Below, piece after piece: positions 19,431 to 50,265 of a stretch of DNA of 64,000 nucleotides. The DNA comes from an uncultured Bdellovibrionales bacterium (GTDB lineage: Bacteria; Bdellovibrionota; Bdellovibrionia; Bdellovibrionales; UBA1609): the NCBI GenBank assembly GCA_903833275.1, contig CAILEP010000028.1, positions 1 to 64,000 of the forward strand, written 5' to 3'. Below the pieces are notes generated by a model. The model saw only the letters and a program-made list of their open reading frames with translations, was not told the origin of the DNA and ran no database searches. Both the position numbers and the translations under genes were made by a program. Numbering within the stretch: position 1 is the first letter of the stretch; the number at the start of each line of letters is the position of its first letter.

Positions 19431-21036
19431 AACGTTCTCTTAGAAAAGCGTAAACGTGGTTGGATAAAAGACTGACCACGCGGCGGTAGTCACTTAACAC
19501 ATCCAAATGAATCGAACTGGTATTGATGGTCTCTTTACGACCCGCCACGAGCCGTTCGATGTGGGCCTCGCGAAGCATCTTCTCCATTTTTCGAATCACT
19601 CGTTTTTTAAATACAACTTTGGCTGCAAGATCTTTGCTCTGCAATTGAAAACAACTGACCGAGAGTGACGCGACTTCCATCACCGCGTCATGAAGATTGG
19701 CGAGCTCCTTCCAGCCTTCGGAGCTGAACTCCACTTTCAACGAATGCTTCTTCTGCGCTAACTCTAATATTGAATTGTCAATAACGTCCGCTGCACTCTC
19801 GAGATCTGAGGCAAAACCAAAAAGCCGAACCATCTCGGTGTGCAAATTGCCATCGTTATTATCCATAAACTTGGTGATAAAAAGCGAAATCTCGCGATTG
19901 AGCAAATCGACTTTATTATCGCGAGCTCGCAAATCTTCAATTAAATCTGGGTTGTGATCATGCAAAATACGAATCGAATCTTTAATCATGCTAATCACTA
20001 TGTCCGCCATGCGAAGACATTCGCGTTCGGCATGGGCCAAAACCACACTCGGAGACTCGAAGGTCGCACGATCGAGATACTTAACCGAAAATTCTTTTTC
20101 TTCTGACGAAGGCGGAAACATTTTCTGAATCAAAGTCGTGGCCGGCTTAATAAACGGAAAGAAAACAATGGCGCCGACCAAATTGAAAATCAAATGAGCG
20201 TTTGCGACGTCGCGAGCTGGCGAACCAACCGAAATAAATTCGGCGATATACGGGGTGAAATAATAAAACATCAAAATGAGCGCGACCTTATGTAAGCAAT
20301 GCGCCCACGCCACTTGCTTACCCACCGTATTGCCCCCCGATGCCGCCATCAGGGCCGTCGCGGTCGTGCCGAGGTTGGCACCGTAAACCCAGTAGAACGC
20401 ATCACCAATCGAAATTAAGCCAGACGCCGCCATGGACATCGCAATACCGACGGCCGCCGCACTACTTCGCACCAACGTTGTGAATGCCGACGCAATCAAC
20501 ACCATTGCGATCGGATTGGCCTTCAAATAGATCAGTGATTCTTTAAAAAGTGGGACATCAACCAGAGCATTGGTTCCGTAACCCATCAGCTCGAGGCCCC
20601 AAAACATAAGACCGAAACCCATGAAAACTTGCATGATTCGGCTCAAAGTTTTTCTATGAGTCAGAAACTGGATTGTGTAACCAAAGGCAAAAATCGGCAA
20701 ACCCATTTCTGCAATATTGAAACTCAATAACTGGGTTGTCACAGTCGTGCCAATACCGGTGCCAAGAATAATGCCCATCACCTGAGGTAAGGTAACGACA
20801 CCCGCCGTGCCAAGACCCACCAGCATCGCTGTCACCGCGCCCGAACTCTGCATTAGCACTGTGACGATGATGCCGGCTAAAACCGAAAGAAATGGATGAT
20901 CGGCCAATCGAGAAATGATATCTCGAATGCGGTTGGCGGCCAGGCTCTGAAGGTTGTCACTCGCAATGTGCATCCCAAGTAAAAAGAACGCTGTGCCACC
21001 CATCAGTAAAACGAAAATCGTATGCGCCTGATTCAT
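19429..21036 (-). CDS. Na/Pi cotransporter family protein with PhoU-like C-terminal domain
   Basis: This 535-aa inner-membrane protein has repeated hydrophobic segments with GLGTAGVVTLPQVMGIILGTGIGTTVTTQLL and the mirrored VRSSAAAVGIAMSMAASG / GANLGTTATALMAA. These are the inverted QSS-type repeats of the NptA/PNaS family (QSSGAVTAMLVGLG is visible). Residues ~330-535 form a helical PhoU-like domain. It probably transports phosphate with sodium. It is the third gene of smc-ftsY-this, overlapping ftsY by 4 nt. Confidence 0.85.
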   Translation of the reverse strand: MNQAHTIFVLLMGGTAFFLLGMHIASDNLQSLAANRIRDIISRLADHPFLSVLAGIIVTVLMQSSGAVTAMLVGLGTAGVVTLPQVMGIILGTGIGTTVTTQLLSFNIAEMGLPIFAFGYTIQFLTHRKTLSRIMQVFMGFGLMFWGLELMGYGTNALVDVPLFKESLIYLKANPIAMVLIASAFTTLVRSSAAAVGIAMSMAASGLISIGDAFYWVYGANLGTTATALMAASGGNTVGKQVAWAHCLHKVALILMFYYFTPYIAEFISVGSPARDVANAHLIFNLVGAIVFFPFIKPATTLIQKMFPPSSEEKEFSVKYLDRATFESPSVVLAHAERECLRMADIVISMIKDSIRILHDHNPDLIEDLRARDNKVDLLNREISLFITKFMDNNDGNLHTEMVRLFGFASDLESAADVIDNSILELAQKKHSLKVEFSSEGWKELANLHDAVMEVASLSVSCFQLQSKDLAAKVVFKKRVIRKMEKMLREAHIERLVAGRKETINTSSIHLDVLSDYRRVVSLLSNHVYAFLRER

Positions 21037-22181
21037 ATCACCGCCTCAACAAATTCGGGGGCGCTAAAAGGGCGAAGATCTTCAAGCGATTCACCAATGC
21101 CAACATAGACAATTGGGATTTTTAATTCATACGCAATCCCGAGAGCCATGCCGCCTTTCGCGGTGCCATCCATTTTTGTAAGAATCGCACCCGTCACGCC
21201 TACTGCCTCATGAAATTGCTTTGCTTGTATCAAAGCGTTTTGCCCAGCGTTCGCGTCGAGAACAATGAGCACTTCGTGCGGCGCCTCGGGCTCAACCTTG
21301 CTCATCACGCGCTTAATTTTTACAAGCTCCTGCATTAAGTGGTCTTGGGTATGCAAACGACCGGCGGTGTCGACCAAAACCAGATCAGAGCCATTGGCCT
21401 TCGCGCGCTCGAGCCCAGCGTAACAGACAGCACTCGGGTCTTTGGTGTTTTCAGCTCCATAAATTTCAGCCCCAGCACGCTCTGCCCAAACTCTCAATTG
21501 GCTGTCAGCCGCGGCCCGAAAAGTGTCGCCCGCAATAATTGTGGTCTTAAGTTTTTTAGCTCGCGCCAGATTTGCCAGTTTACCAATTGTCGTGGTTTTG
21601 CCGGCGCCGTTGACCCCGACAATCATCCACACCTGAGGCTTTGATGCCGTCGCGAGCTTTTGCCAAAGTTCTTCGCGAATCACCAGATTAAAAACGTCAT
21701 TCATTTCAGCTTTGAGGCCGGTGCGCACAGCCTCAAGACTATTGCGTTCTTTTTTTTGCAAATCATCAGTCACGCGATTGAGCAATGCATCGGCCGTTTT
21801 AGGGCCGAGATCGCTCGAGTAAAGAATTTCTTCAACTTCGTCGCGAATCTGAATCGGCAGCTCTCCGGCATTCGCCAGCTTTGCGATGCGACCCCACAAA
21901 GATTCACGCGTCGATTTGAGTGCCGTCGCCACTGTTGCAGTCGATGAAACCGAGCGAGGTGTTGGCGCACCTGAGGCGGGCGTCAATGCAGTGGCTGCGG
22001 GTGGTATTTGGCTTAATTCTTTTGGCGCCAACCCATATTCGATCGGCTTCTTGGTTAATAGCTCTTTGTCATCATGATCAGTCTTGATGTAGTAGCGGGC
22101 AAAATAATAAACAAGCGAGGAGCCAACTCCGATGACTACAAAGAGAATCGACAACCCAATAACGAACCCGGTTGAATCCAT
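21033..22181 (-). CDS. ftsY: Signal recognition particle receptor FtsY, membrane-anchored form
   Basis: The 382-aa SRP-receptor GTPase has P-loop GVNGAGKT (189-196), GDTFRAAADSQL, DTAGRLHTQ and TKMDGTAKGG. Unlike the E. coli type, which has an acidic A-domain, it starts with a clear transmembrane helix (about 5-28) and a short Pro/Ala-rich linker before the NG domain. It therefore resembles the fixed-anchor forms seen in some other bacteria. It docks ribosome-SRP complexes to the translocon. Its ATG overlaps smc's stop (TAATG). Confidence 0.95.
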   Translation of the reverse strand: MDSTGFVIGLSILFVVIGVGSSLVYYFARYYIKTDHDDKELLTKKPIEYGLAPKELSQIPPAATALTPASGAPTPRSVSSTATVATALKSTRESLWGRIAKLANAGELPIQIRDEVEEILYSSDLGPKTADALLNRVTDDLQKKERNSLEAVRTGLKAEMNDVFNLVIREELWQKLATASKPQVWMIVGVNGAGKTTTIGKLANLARAKKLKTTIIAGDTFRAAADSQLRVWAERAGAEIYGAENTKDPSAVCYAGLERAKANGSDLVLVDTAGRLHTQDHLMQELVKIKRVMSKVEPEAPHEVLIVLDANAGQNALIQAKQFHEAVGVTGAILTKMDGTAKGGMALGIAYELKIPIVYVGIGESLEDLRPFSAPEFVEAVI

Positions 22182-42471: not shown

Positions 42472-43458
42472 TCAAAGATCTAAATCGTGAATGACTCCGC
42501 GGCGAATGCTTTCGAGCGCTTTAGCGGGGTTGAGTTTAACCCCTTTGGCTTTTTCAACTAACGAATTCGATTCGTATTGATAAGTAAGCTCGATGTCTTT
42601 TTCGATCAAATAACGAAAGGCCGCGCGATCCATACGGTTGGATTTGTAGGCCGCCAGGACCTTCTGCCGATAGACATTCGTCATTAGCGACGGTTCAACC
42701 TTGCCCAACATCTCAGGCATCTCGACTGCAATCTCAAGATTAATATAATCAAAATAATATCGATGCGTAAGGCGAAAGACCTCAAAAGTATCTTGTTCGC
42801 TCAAATTGTACTTAGCCGCAGTTTCATTCGCTTGCCGAAATAGTATGCTGTCTTTGAAATCAGAAACGATATGCGGGTTGCTACTTTTCATATCGAGATC
42901 TTTTGCTTGGCCGGCATAACCCATAAGAGCTAAACGCAAAGCATAGACCCCTTTCAACGCGGCTGTTTTGGTAATACTGCCCATATCAAGATTGGCCTTG
43001 ATGCCTTCATACATGAGATCATTTTGCAAAAGCTCAAGATCTTCTTTTTCATGTTTCAACGAGTTTTCAGCGACAATCTGTTCAGTCTCTTGATTAAACT
43101 TTTGCTCAACGGGTCGCTGGTGCCCAAAATAAAGGGCCGTCGACAAAATCACAGTTGTTAATATTAGACTCGGGCGCTTTTTAACGTAGAAAAGTCTTTC
43201 GGTGATCGCCTCGGTGGGTCTGTCGATTAAGTATTCGCCTAAAAAACGAAATGGGTGTCGCCAAGATTGCGCTTCAGTCACCGCCGGGGGGTCAACAAAG
43301 AAAATTCTTGCCCCACGAGTGTCTTTGACGTCGACGACATAGGCTTTAATGGCACGAGCTTTGGCCCTGAAAAAATCGGCGCACACATTGCCCGCATAAG
43401 AAAATGGCGACCCCACGAGGGCCGCCATTAAGACTAAAACAATCGTCTTTTTAATCAT
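42472..43458 (-). CDS. Exported/membrane protein of unknown function
   Basis: The 328-aa protein has an N-terminal signal sequence (MIKKTIVLVLMAALVGSPFSYAG) and a second hydrophobic segment (PSLILTTVILSTALYFGH, about 95-112), so it may be anchored in the membrane. The rest is helical, rich in charged residues and Tyr, with no recognised motif. It starts 4 nt after the upstream exported gene's stop, so the two form an operon and may act together. Function unknown. Confidence 0.7.
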   Translation of the reverse strand: MIKKTIVLVLMAALVGSPFSYAGNVCADFFRAKARAIKAYVVDVKDTRGARIFFVDPPAVTEAQSWRHPFRFLGEYLIDRPTEAITERLFYVKKRPSLILTTVILSTALYFGHQRPVEQKFNQETEQIVAENSLKHEKEDLELLQNDLMYEGIKANLDMGSITKTAALKGVYALRLALMGYAGQAKDLDMKSSNPHIVSDFKDSILFRQANETAAKYNLSEQDTFEVFRLTHRYYFDYINLEIAVEMPEMLGKVEPSLMTNVYRQKVLAAYKSNRMDRAAFRYLIEKDIELTYQYESNSLVEKAKGVKLNPAKALESIRRGVIHDLDL

Positions 43459-47466: not shown

Positions 47467-50265
47467 ATGAAAGACCTTTTGGCCGCACCAAAGAATAAGA
47501 TTATGAACCGGGCCCTGCATACTCTCATTGTGACCCCAATCGCCAGCTTGATGCTTATAGCGCCGAGCGCCTGGGCCGCGGGCGATGCCCCTCCAGCCCC
47601 GCCTAAGCCGCCTCAACAGGGTGATATGAAGAATAGGACCACCGCGAAAGAACGCGGCCAGATCTATTGGACACCTATCAGTGCGCGACACATCACCTTT
47701 CGTGTTGTTTACAACAATTCGCTAACCAACTCGACATCACCATCTCGCCATCTCGGCATCTATAGACGAGCTCAGATTGCAAAGGCACCCCCGGCCCTCC
47801 GAGATACCGTCGAAGAAAACCTTCTGCTACCAGGCAATTTGCAACCCCTGCCTTTTGACGCCTCAATGGACCTCAAAGACCTTTCGGTTGAAAGCCCCTA
47901 CGTTTTACCGCGCCCCGATTATGCACTGGTTTCAAATATTAAAAAGGATCTCTATATATTGACTGAAAACGGTATTGCGCAAATCAACAGAGTGCCCGTC
48001 GAGAACGTTTCAGCGATCCTTAACAAAGCGCATATGAATCGCCACCTCTATGACATCTATTTTATTTCAAACGCCAACAAACAAGTTGGCGAACTTTTAG
48101 TCATTCGTGATGATGGCCAAGTCGTATCGGCTGGCTCAGCCGCGGTTTCAAAAACCCTGACCATTAAAGTGCAGGGTCGAAATCTGCCAATTCTGATCGT
48201 AAACGGTCAGCCGTTACAAACACCTGAAGACTACAAAGCCTTAATAGATGCGACGATCGATATGGCCGAGGCAAATCAAAAACCGGATCAGAGCGGTGTC
48301 GACCGCTCAAGAGCACTCGCCCCCATCATCAGTGGCGGCGCTCAACACCATGGCCCGACGGCAAAGGGCGGAGCAACACCAGAGAATTCTGACTTTATGA
48401 AGGGCATTGAAGACGTCGACGTCATGAGCGCTGAAGGCAAATCTGAGTCGGCTAAAAATATTGTCAAAGTTTTTGTCACAGACGTTGTCGCTGAATTGAA
48501 AGCCAAGGCCGATGAGAACATCAATGTCGACGCCAACCTTGAAGCGCAAATTGCCCGCGGCCTATTGAAACGCGAACGCGGCAGCGTCGCGTTTCTCGGC
48601 GAAGCCGGCGTCGGAAAGTCGACGAACATCCGCGGTCTTATTTACGACATTCATATTAAGAAGAAACCCGAACTTCAGGCTCTTCAAGAATATACATTTC
48701 TTGAGGTCAGCCCGTCGGCTCTTGGGGCCGGCAACAAATTTGTGGGCGCGGTCGATACCAAAATAAACGCCATGATTCAATTATCACGTAAAAACAAAAT
48801 TATTTGGGTGCTCGATGAAATGCACGTGCTGCGCGGTATGGGCACCAGCTCAAACGACAGCAATGATGTTTTAGACTTTATGATGAAACCGTTGAGCGAC
48901 GGAACACTTCGCACCATCGGTATCACGACCCCCGATTCGTTCTGGGCCATGTTCGGTGGTGACCCCGGGTTGCGCAGACGGTTCACGATTGTTGAACGCA
49001 AGAACCCAGACCAAGAAGAAGTACTTCACATTTCTCAATCGTGGGTCAAGCGCTTCAACCTTTCGGCTGCATCAGACGACGTCTTGAAAGAGGCAATTCG
49101 AATTGCCGCAGAGATGGACCCCACCCGCGCCCAGCCCGACGCTACGATTTCGCTACTCGAAGAAGCCTATGCCGATAAACGATTGACGAAAGCAACCGAG
49201 GGCACCCCGCTTGAATTAAAAGACTTACAGCAAGCAGCGGTTCGACTTTACAGCCTTGACCCCTCTTTTATGACTCCGTCTCGACAGAAAGATCGATTCA
49301 TTCATCTAAAAAGCTATTTGGATGAAAATATTATTGGTCAGGACCTTGCCAAAAAAATGGTTCTCGATTTAACAGAACAGATTTTGGCCGATGTCCATGA
49401 CAACAGCAAGCCTCGAATTATGGCGATGCTCACTGGCAAAAAGGGTTTGGGTAAAACTGAATTTGTTTTGGCCTATGCAAAGGCCCTCGGCTTGCCTATT
49501 GAAATAATCGAAATGAATTCATTCAACAGCCCGCGCTCGGGTTTTGACCGAATGGGCCTGATGGAAGCTCTCGCTAACGCCATCAATAAAAGCCCCTTTG
49601 TCGTCATCGGCTTCGACGAATTTGAGAAGGCACCGATTGCAGTACAGAACGAACTTTTGAGAATGCTCAACAATGGCGAATTCACGGTTACCGTTCGCAA
49701 CAAAGGCGAAACGGGCACCCAGGTTTCACGCAAAATTGATGCACGAAAAACCAGCATCTTCTTTACGGCTAATGCCGGCCAAGAGTACATGCGCGAGAAA
49801 GCCCGCCCTTCGATCGGCTTTGTCTCTAACCATAATTCAGAGGCCGAATCGACCCGCAGTCGCAACCTACGCGAAGCCCTAGAGGCCGATAATCTTTCAA
49901 ACGTCGTTCTTGATCGGGTGAATGCGATAATCCCGTTTATTGATACGAGCCGTGAAGAATTTAAAAATGTAATCGCTCTGCACTTGCGCAAAACAATTCA
50001 TAATCTTGGATTGCGAAATAAAAAGACCATATCGGTTGAGAATGAGGCCGGGTTTCTTGAGTTTTCGGCCCAAAGGCTCTATCACGAAAACGTGAGCAAT
50101 CGAGATGCGTTACGTGCCGTTCAAGATGACGTTCGCCAAGTGATTGCGCGAGCGCTGCTCGGTGTAAACGGCACCACTAAAGTTGTATTGAAATTTGAGG
50201 GCACGGGCTTTGTCGCTGAATTAACGGGCGAAAGCTGTACTGAACTACTGAAAGGTGCTAAATAG
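47467..50265 (+). CDS. ClpB-like double AAA+ ATPase with N-terminal signal peptide
   Basis: This 932-aa protein has a basic n-region, a hydrophobic core (LIVTPIASLMLIAPSAWA) and an A-x-A type cleavage site, so it should be exported or membrane-anchored. A Pro-rich segment and a unique domain (about 60-300) follow. AAA-1 has Walker A GEAGVGKST (378-386), a pore-loop-like NKFVG and Walker B with Asp450-Glu451. AAA-2 has Walker A at 657-664, a pore-like SGFDRMG, Walker B with Asp717-Glu718 and FTAN as sensor 1. A ClpB-type C-terminal domain ends it. Both ATP sites look intact, which is odd for an exported protein. GAGGG precedes the ATG. ClpB N-domain and middle-domain are not evident. A chaperone/unfoldase role is inferred; location and energy source are unknown. 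Confidence 0.82.
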   Translation: MKDLLAAPKNKIMNRALHTLIVTPIASLMLIAPSAWAAGDAPPAPPKPPQQGDMKNRTTAKERGQIYWTPISARHITFRVVYNNSLTNSTSPSRHLGIYRRAQIAKAPPALRDTVEENLLLPGNLQPLPFDASMDLKDLSVESPYVLPRPDYALVSNIKKDLYILTENGIAQINRVPVENVSAILNKAHMNRHLYDIYFISNANKQVGELLVIRDDGQVVSAGSAAVSKTLTIKVQGRNLPILIVNGQPLQTPEDYKALIDATIDMAEANQKPDQSGVDRSRALAPIISGGAQHHGPTAKGGATPENSDFMKGIEDVDVMSAEGKSESAKNIVKVFVTDVVAELKAKADENINVDANLEAQIARGLLKRERGSVAFLGEAGVGKSTNIRGLIYDIHIKKKPELQALQEYTFLEVSPSALGAGNKFVGAVDTKINAMIQLSRKNKIIWVLDEMHVLRGMGTSSNDSNDVLDFMMKPLSDGTLRTIGITTPDSFWAMFGGDPGLRRRFTIVERKNPDQEEVLHISQSWVKRFNLSAASDDVLKEAIRIAAEMDPTRAQPDATISLLEEAYADKRLTKATEGTPLELKDLQQAAVRLYSLDPSFMTPSRQKDRFIHLKSYLDENIIGQDLAKKMVLDLTEQILADVHDNSKPRIMAMLTGKKGLGKTEFVLAYAKALGLPIEIIEMNSFNSPRSGFDRMGLMEALANAINKSPFVVIGFDEFEKAPIAVQNELLRMLNNGEFTVTVRNKGETGTQVSRKIDARKTSIFFTANAGQEYMREKARPSIGFVSNHNSEAESTRSRNLREALEADNLSNVVLDRVNAIIPFIDTSREEFKNVIALHLRKTIHNLGLRNKKTISVENEAGFLEFSAQRLYHENVSNRDALRAVQDDVRQVIARALLGVNGTTKVVLKFEGTGFVAELTGESCTELLKGAK

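What the first reader, a model, noticed from the sequence alone, without database searches (positions are those of the whole stretch)
47467..50265. Exported ClpB-like AAA+ ATPase
A double-AAA+ unfoldase with intact Walker A/B motifs in both modules carries a canonical signal peptide and a novel N-terminal domain. The periplasm lacks ATP, so either it is anchored facing the cytoplasm, secreted into a compartment with ATP (for a predator, the prey cell), or uses an unknown energy source. Each possibility would be new biology.
Basis: partly seen in the sequence, partly recalled or inferred. Interest (0 to 1): 0.65.

Follow-up and report, generated by a model that had tools for sequence, protein, structure and literature searches.

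The report
Sec-exported ClpA-derived AAA+ unfoldase family
Some Bdellovibrionota bacteria carry an ATP-driven protein-unfolding motor that looks built to be exported out of the cytoplasm, where ATP is supposed to be absent; the export signal is kept across a divergent family of these motors, so this is not an annotation slip, but where they find ATP is unknown.

Summary
Window 47467-50265 encodes a 932-residue double-AAA+ protein with both Walker A/B pairs intact, behind a Sec signal peptide with an AWA|A cleavage site. It belongs to a divergent family (20-35% identity) found in 16 of 369 Bdellovibrionota genomes. All 15 members with a complete N-terminus begin with a signal-peptide-like segment (13 pass a strict rule, 2 by eye), against 0 of 48 ClpA/ClpB controls. 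The Walker A lysines are invariant in both rings of all 16. Every member keeps a Walker A/B pair and arginine finger in at least one ring. The family is a sister clade of ClpA, not ClpB: no M-domain, no Clp N-domain, and the D2 GYVG pore loop is deleted in all 16. Thirteen of 15 complete C-termini carry a conserved cysteine (CxxLL-type tail). The same genome encodes a second, otherwise different exported double-AAA+ protein with an HEFGH peptidase motif and nearly the same tail (SCASLLKGA / SCTELLKGAK). Best reading: an ATP-dependent unfoldase working after export, most likely on ATP from another cell. The export signal is shown by sequence; destination and ATP source are inferred. No predator link was found; a sampled Bdellovibrio-like genus lacks the gene.

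The parts
47467..50265 (+). exported ClpA-derived double-AAA+ ATPase, 932 aa, stop codon included
   Evidence: ORF; family; tree
47467..47577 (+). Sec signal peptide, residues 1-37, cleavage AWA|A
   Evidence: 13 of 15 family members by strict rule, the other 2 by eye; charge and core length
47578..48396 (+). N-terminal region, residues 38-310: beta-rich about 76-245 plus low-confidence linker; no Pfam match; single copy in genome; fold not resolved
48598..48624 (+). D1 Walker A GEAGVGKST (Lys384 invariant in 16 of 16)
48730..48747 (+). D1 pore loop GNKFVG (aromatic in 12 of 16)
48799..48825 (+). D1 Walker B IIWVLDEMH
49435..49461 (+). D2 Walker A GKKGLGKTE (Lys663 invariant in 16 of 16)
49600..49632 (+). 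D2 Walker B VVIGFDEFEKA
49813..49821 (+). IGF tripeptide aligned with the ClpA IGL (ClpP-docking) loop; kept in part of the family
50233..50262 (+). C-terminal tail SCTELLKGAK with the only cysteine of the protein (Cys924)

Best explanation
This is a ClpA paralogue that lost its Clp N-domain and the D2 GYVG pore loop and gained a Sec signal peptide, a new beta-rich N-terminal region and a single-cysteine C-terminal tail. It is exported unfolded through Sec and cut by signal peptidase I. It then folds outside the cytoplasm, presumably as a hexamer, and remodels or unfolds proteins there by ATP hydrolysis, pulling mainly through the D1 aromatic pore loops. The ATP most likely belongs to another organism (a prey, host or lysing neighbour cell), because the bacterium's own periplasm is held to contain none. 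Supported by sequence: signal peptide across the family, intact ATPase motifs, ClpA descent, tail Cys. Inferred: hexamer, substrate unfolding, final compartment, ATP source. I put export at about 0.88 and ATP hydrolysis after export at about 0.75; 'in or at another cell' is only about 0.4.
For: Signal peptides in the family: 13 of 15 strict plus 2 by eye, with 0 of 48 Clp controls. Cores are short with a positive n-region, as in signal peptides rather than anchors. One clade sister to ClpA, SH-aLRT 100. Walker A Lys 16 of 16 in D1 and D2, D2 sensor-1 Asn 16 of 16, D2 sensor-2 Arg 15 of 15; members with degenerate D1 (L069, L070, L071) keep D2, and the one with degenerate D2 (L067) keeps D1. 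Strong constraint between two members 64% identical at protein level: pN 0.24 with synonymous sites saturated, pS 0.81. A second exported double-AAA+ family (G000:C31:142387-145683 plus homologues) has signal peptides at all 8 readable N-termini, HEFGH in all complete members, an invariant C-terminal Cys and nearly the same tail. In 1.23 Mb of this genome these two are the only signal-peptide-bearing proteins with strict Walker A plus Walker B, FtsY (a membrane-anchored case) being the nearest other hit. The AAA+ core was predicted mostly at pLDDT about 80-95 and aligns with ClpA, ClpC and Hsp104 at Z about 24.
Against: No experiment. The signal-peptide rule is home-made, not SignalP. 'There is no ATP in the periplasm' (PMC7391070). 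No carrier has a detectable ATP/ADP carrier of the TLC type. No conserved neighbour, partner or secretion system next to the gene. The family is absent from the Bdellovibrio-like genus and from the other five genomes of the window's own genus, so no link with predation is shown. The D2 pore loop is missing, so processive threading is uncertain.
Confidence: 0.5

Rival explanations
1. It is exported but works in the bacterium's own periplasm or outer envelope as a proteostasis machine, on ATP that leaks in, is released by neighbours or is delivered by an unknown route.
For: Signal peptidase I sites make the periplasm the default address. A second exported AAA+ with a peptidase motif fits an envelope quality-control role. 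A C..[LF][LFI] motif is enriched in tails of exported proteins of this genome generally, not only in ATPases.
Against: No known periplasmic ATP (PMC7391070); no TLC transporter in carriers; patchy distribution, 16 of 369 genomes, argues against housekeeping.
Confidence: 0.27
2. It is exported but no longer a motor: a nucleotide-locked or nucleotide-free AAA+ ring used as scaffold or adhesin.
For: Some members have lost catalytic residues in one ring, and the D2 GYVG pore loop is deleted in all 16.
Against: Walker A Lys is invariant in both rings, and no member lost both sites; a scaffold would be expected to lose them somewhere across 20-35% identity.
Confidence: 0.12
3. The N-terminal hydrophobic segment is a membrane anchor and the AAA+ part faces the cytoplasm.
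For: The periplasm lacks ATP; FtsY in this window is such a case (TM-anchored, cytoplasmic P-loop).
Against: n-regions positive, hydrophobic cores mostly 11-18 residues followed by A-x-A in nearly all members, no positive cluster shared after the core; tail Cys motif shared with other exported proteins.
Confidence: 0.07
4. Start misannotation: the real protein starts downstream and is cytoplasmic.
For: Internal ATG codons exist (for example M54).
Against: The signal peptide is kept at the N-terminus of 15 of 15 complete members that share little else at that end.
Confidence: 0.04

Closest known systems
ClpA (TIGR02639), unfoldase of ClpAP
   Same: Two AAA+ rings with the same spacing (279 versus 281 residues between Walker A lysines), no M-domain, sister clade in the tree, IGF/L-type loop in about half the members
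   Different: Signal peptide instead of a Clp N-domain; D2 GYVG pore loop deleted; C-terminal Cys tail; NCBIfam score 202 bits against a cut-off of 993; no exported ClpP found in the own genome
Plasmodium HSP101 (PTEX), an HSP100 working outside the parasite cell
   Same: HSP100 double ring used outside the cell's own cytoplasm; the structure appears among fold matches (6e10, Z 21.9); export role in PMC7355975
   Different: HSP101 is a ClpB with M-domain and partners EXP2/PTEX150; none seen here. Analogy only.
Torsins (ER lumen) and Skd3/CLPB (mitochondrial intermembrane space)
   Same: Clp/HSP100-related AAA+ in an extracytoplasmic compartment (from general knowledge; Skd3 AAA+ matches D2 at Z about 23)
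   Different: Single AAA+ ring, eukaryotic, in compartments that hold ATP (general knowledge)
Exported AAA+ / HEXXH protein of this phylum (G000:C31:142387-145683 and homologues)
   Same: Signal peptide, two AAA+ modules, C-terminal Cys tail; found in the same genome
   Different: Not ClpA-derived beyond AAA+ (ClpA E 1.6e-8); carries an FtsH-like HEFGH peptidase region; only this genome has both families

Membership tests
ClpB / Hsp104 | Coiled-coil M-domain between D1 and D2 (Walker A spacing about 400) | tested here: not met
   Spacing 264-284 in 16 members against 398-405 in 7 ClpB
ClpB / Hsp104 | Groups with ClpB in a tree | tested here: not met
   Groups with ClpA, apart from ClpB
ClpA | Two AAA+ rings without M-domain, sister to or inside the ClpA clade | tested here: met
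   Sister clade to ClpA, long stem 2.54
ClpA | N-terminal Clp_N repeat domain | tested here: not met
   No Clp_N match in the window protein; not among the 25 families that most members match
ClpA | D2 GYVG pore loop | tested here: not met
   Deleted in 16 of 16
ClpA | IGF/L loop for ClpP docking | tested here: inconclusive
   IGF-like in about half of 16 members; no exported ClpP in the own genome
ClpA | NCBIfam equivalog cut-off | tested here: not met
   202 bits against 993.15
AAA+ ATPase (active) | Walker A Lys, Walker B Asp-Glu, Arg finger and sensors in at least one ring | tested here: met
   activity itself not testable here
Sec/SPI substrate | n-region positive, short hydrophobic core, A-x-A site | tested here: met
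   (home-made rule; SignalP not available)
PTEX-like translocon | Membrane pore and adaptor partners | tested here: inconclusive
   No conserved neighbours in 16 loci, but partners need not be linked
Hexameric unfoldase | Hexamer and ATP-driven unfolding | not testable with these tools
   Needs purified protein

The most novel reading that the evidence does not exclude
Bdellovibrionota secrete ATP-dependent protein machines (a ClpA-derived unfoldase and an AAA+ protein with an FtsH-like peptidase motif, sharing a cysteine-bearing C-terminal tail) that work inside or at another cell on that cell's ATP, as malaria parasites do with HSP101; the tail would be part of a not yet described sorting or redox-release system.
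Probability: 0.25. Interest if true: 0.93.

Novelty: new variant of a known kind. Interest (0 to 1): 0.72.

Why it matters
HSP100 unfoldases in bacteria are treated as cytoplasmic because they need ATP. A family whose signal peptide and ATP-binding residues are both conserved across great divergence, plus a second exported AAA+ family carrying a peptidase motif in the same phylum, means either that ATP is available outside the cytoplasm of these bacteria or that the machines act in other cells. Either answer would be new, and it can be tested with a heterologously expressed mature protein and a localisation assay.

Tried and rejected
Family-wide alignment A1 had no stretch conserved enough for the genome-contig scan; a three-member alignment found only the two members already known, which gave names: Bdellovibrionales HKST-UBA12 and Bdellovibrionota KLAP115. 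Genomes outside the phylum could not be searched with the genome search ('of' takes G handles only), so the host range beyond Bdellovibrionota is untested apart from plasmids (no match) and phages (ordinary Clp-annotated proteins at about 24% identity among the rows shown). Exported ClpP partner: none in the own genome. ATP/ADP translocase PF03219 as ATP source: in 2 of 369 genomes, no carrier. Conserved operon partners: none. N-terminal domain fold: mean pLDDT 47, so not searched against structures. In a 400 kb sample of a Bdellovibrio-like genome none of 108 signal-peptide proteins has the tail motif, which is too few to exclude it. Literature searches found no bacterial exported Clp/AAA+; absence from this library is not proof. 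Co-occurrence with predation genes was not tested.

Full report
WHAT IS THERE. The ORF at 47467-50265 (+) codes for 932 residues. It starts with MKDLLAAPKNKIMNRALHTLIVTPIASLMLIAPSAWA|AGD, followed by an N-terminal region of about 270 residues without any Pfam match, then two AAA+ modules. Pfam AAA matches at 375-488 and AAA_2 at 651-804. The best NCBIfam model is ClpA (E 1.5e-59 but 202 bits against a cut-off of 993), ahead of ClpV1 and ClpB. The AlphaFold2 model has a AAA+ core mostly at pLDDT about 80-95. Foldseek and VIA-align put it with ClpC, ClpA, ClpB and Hsp104.

A FAMILY, NOT A FREAK. Searches of 40 relatives, 141 order genomes and 369 phylum genomes show a set of 16 proteins in 16 genomes. 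They score 339-922 bits with the family profile; ordinary ClpA proteins of the same phylum score about 311 at most. Members come from about ten taxonomic families but are patchy, and the other five genomes of the window's own genus lack it. Two members are named in GTDB records: Bdellovibrionales HKST-UBA12 and Bdellovibrionota KLAP115. The genus with many closed 3-4 Mb genomes, which I take to be Bdellovibrio, has only ClpA at this level.

THE SIGNAL PEPTIDE IS THE MOST CONSERVED THING AT THE N-TERMINUS. The N-terminal regions of the members are hardly alignable and in several are nearly absent (L066, L070, L071). Yet all 15 complete N-termini have a signal-peptide-like start. A strict rule accepts 13; the other two read MKLLFILICIHASAVLA|S and MFLLIMSFLMVFA|EEK. 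The same rule accepts 37 of 136 other ORFs in the loci and 0 of 48 ClpA/ClpB proteins. If members were drawn at the background rate of 0.27, 13 or more of 15 would have a probability of about 2e-6 (own arithmetic). Hydrophobic cores are short, n-regions are positive, and A-x-A follows. FtsY in the same window (21033-22181), with a 26-residue hydrophobic segment, is the natural contrast. Synonymous sites are saturated between the two closest members (pS 0.81, pN 0.24, 64% identity), so the protein is under strong constraint.

THE MOTORS ARE INTACT. In an alignment with ClpA and ClpB, the D1 and D2 Walker A lysines are kept in 16 of 16, the D2 sensor-1 Asn in 16 of 16, the D2 arginine finger in 15 of 16 and the D2 sensor-2 Arg in 15 of 15. 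Three members have degenerate D1 sites (Walker B DN or DD, arginine finger lost) but keep D2. One has a degenerate D2 (DK, Gln for the finger) but keeps D1. No member lost both. This is hard to reconcile with a compartment without ATP. What did change is the D2 pore loop: the GYVG stretch is deleted in all 16, while D1 keeps an aromatic residue in 12 of 16. I infer that D1 does the gripping.

DESCENT. A maximum-likelihood tree gives three clades: exported family, ClpA and ClpB. The exported family is sister to ClpA (SH-aLRT 100, stem 2.54). The long branches call for care, but two independent features agree: the Walker A spacing is 264-284, as in ClpA (278-286), not 398-405 as in ClpB, and about half the members keep an IGF-like tripeptide where ClpA has its ClpP-docking IGL loop. 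An exported ClpP partner was looked for and not found in the own genome.

THE TAIL AND A COMPANION. Cys924 is the only cysteine of the window protein. Thirteen of the 15 members with a complete C-terminus have a cysteine near the end, usually C-x-x-[LIV]-[LF]. In about 1.23 Mb of the own genome (40%), only two proteins with a signal peptide have strict Walker A plus Walker B (FtsY is the nearest other hit). One is this protein. The other is a 1099-residue protein at G000:C31:142387-145683 with two AAA+ modules, an HEFGH motif resembling FtsH (M41 E 0.003, M50 E 0.001, so weak), a signal peptide, a single cysteine and the tail SCASLLKGA, against SCTELLKGAK here. It has eight further homologous copies in seven other genomes of the phylum. 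All eight readable N-termini of that family have signal peptides; HEFGH and the tail Cys are invariant among seven aligned members. So two distinct exported AAA+ families exist in this phylum and share a tail. Only this genome has both, so they are not an obligate pair. The tail motif is not private to ATPases: C..[LF][LFI] occurs in the last 20 residues of 6 of 272 signal-peptide proteins of this genome against 0.63 expected (0 of 1000 shuffles), with no excess in proteins without a signal peptide under a slightly wider pattern. It looks like a lineage feature of exported proteins. Its function is unknown; disulfide anchoring or redox release are guesses.

HOW IT MOST LIKELY WORKS. Shown by sequence: an export signal, intact ATP sites, ClpA descent, lost N-domain and D2 pore loop, tail cysteine. 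Inferred: Sec export in the unfolded state, cleavage after residue 37, folding and assembly outside, ATP-driven remodelling of proteins through D1. The weak step is ATP. Textbook opinion is that the periplasm has none (PMC7391070). Nothing in the genomes points to a supply: TLC carriers are absent from the genomes that have the gene. The cheapest answer is that the protein meets ATP of another cell, for which Plasmodium HSP101 is a working precedent (PMC7355975; fold match 6e10). But no evidence here ties the family to predation, and the likely Bdellovibrio genus lacks it.

VERDICT. This is a new, exported variant of a known kind of machine. Interest 0.72.

Noticed in passing
own genome G000:C31:142387-145683 (L138:2387-5683 +), homologues L146-L153: Second exported double-AAA+ family, 1099 aa, with an FtsH-like HEFGH motif, signal peptides at all readable N-termini, and an invariant C-terminal Cys (tail SCASLLKGA). 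9 copies in 8 of 369 genomes.
   Followed up: partly
exported proteins of the own genome, e.g. L166:246-2327, L163:412-1395, L170:11730-12884: C..[LF][LFI] motif enriched in the last 20 residues of signal-peptide proteins (6 of 272, 0.63 expected by shuffling); tails such as NCADLLKPSS, NCLDLLQP, GCRELLQP. Also a weaker excess near the mature N-terminus (6 against 1.39).
   Followed up: partly
L125:6243-7025 (-), G000:C28 about 70.2-71.0 kb: Exported ParBc_2 (PF08857, E 9e-50) protein with a signal peptide and a single Cys in the tail QCKRFLSKQ.
   Followed up: no
window 21033-22181 (-): Probable FtsY with a long N-terminal hydrophobic segment; a useful contrast to the signal peptide of the Clp protein.
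   Followed up: partly
window 42472-43458 (-): Exported 328-aa protein whose mature N-terminus starts GNVCADFFRAK, the C-x-x-[FL]-[FL] motif at the other end.
   Followed up: no
G161:C4:323984-345796 (L202, L203): Two copies of the exported AAA+/HEFGH protein about 19 kb apart in one genome.
   Followed up: no
G020:C107:1507-3873 (L105): Two weak ClpP-like matches in one contig; the first is a probable lipoprotein (MKAVILSLLGLFLLSSC). G020 carries the exported Clp family, so an exported ClpP-like partner there is possible.
   Followed up: no
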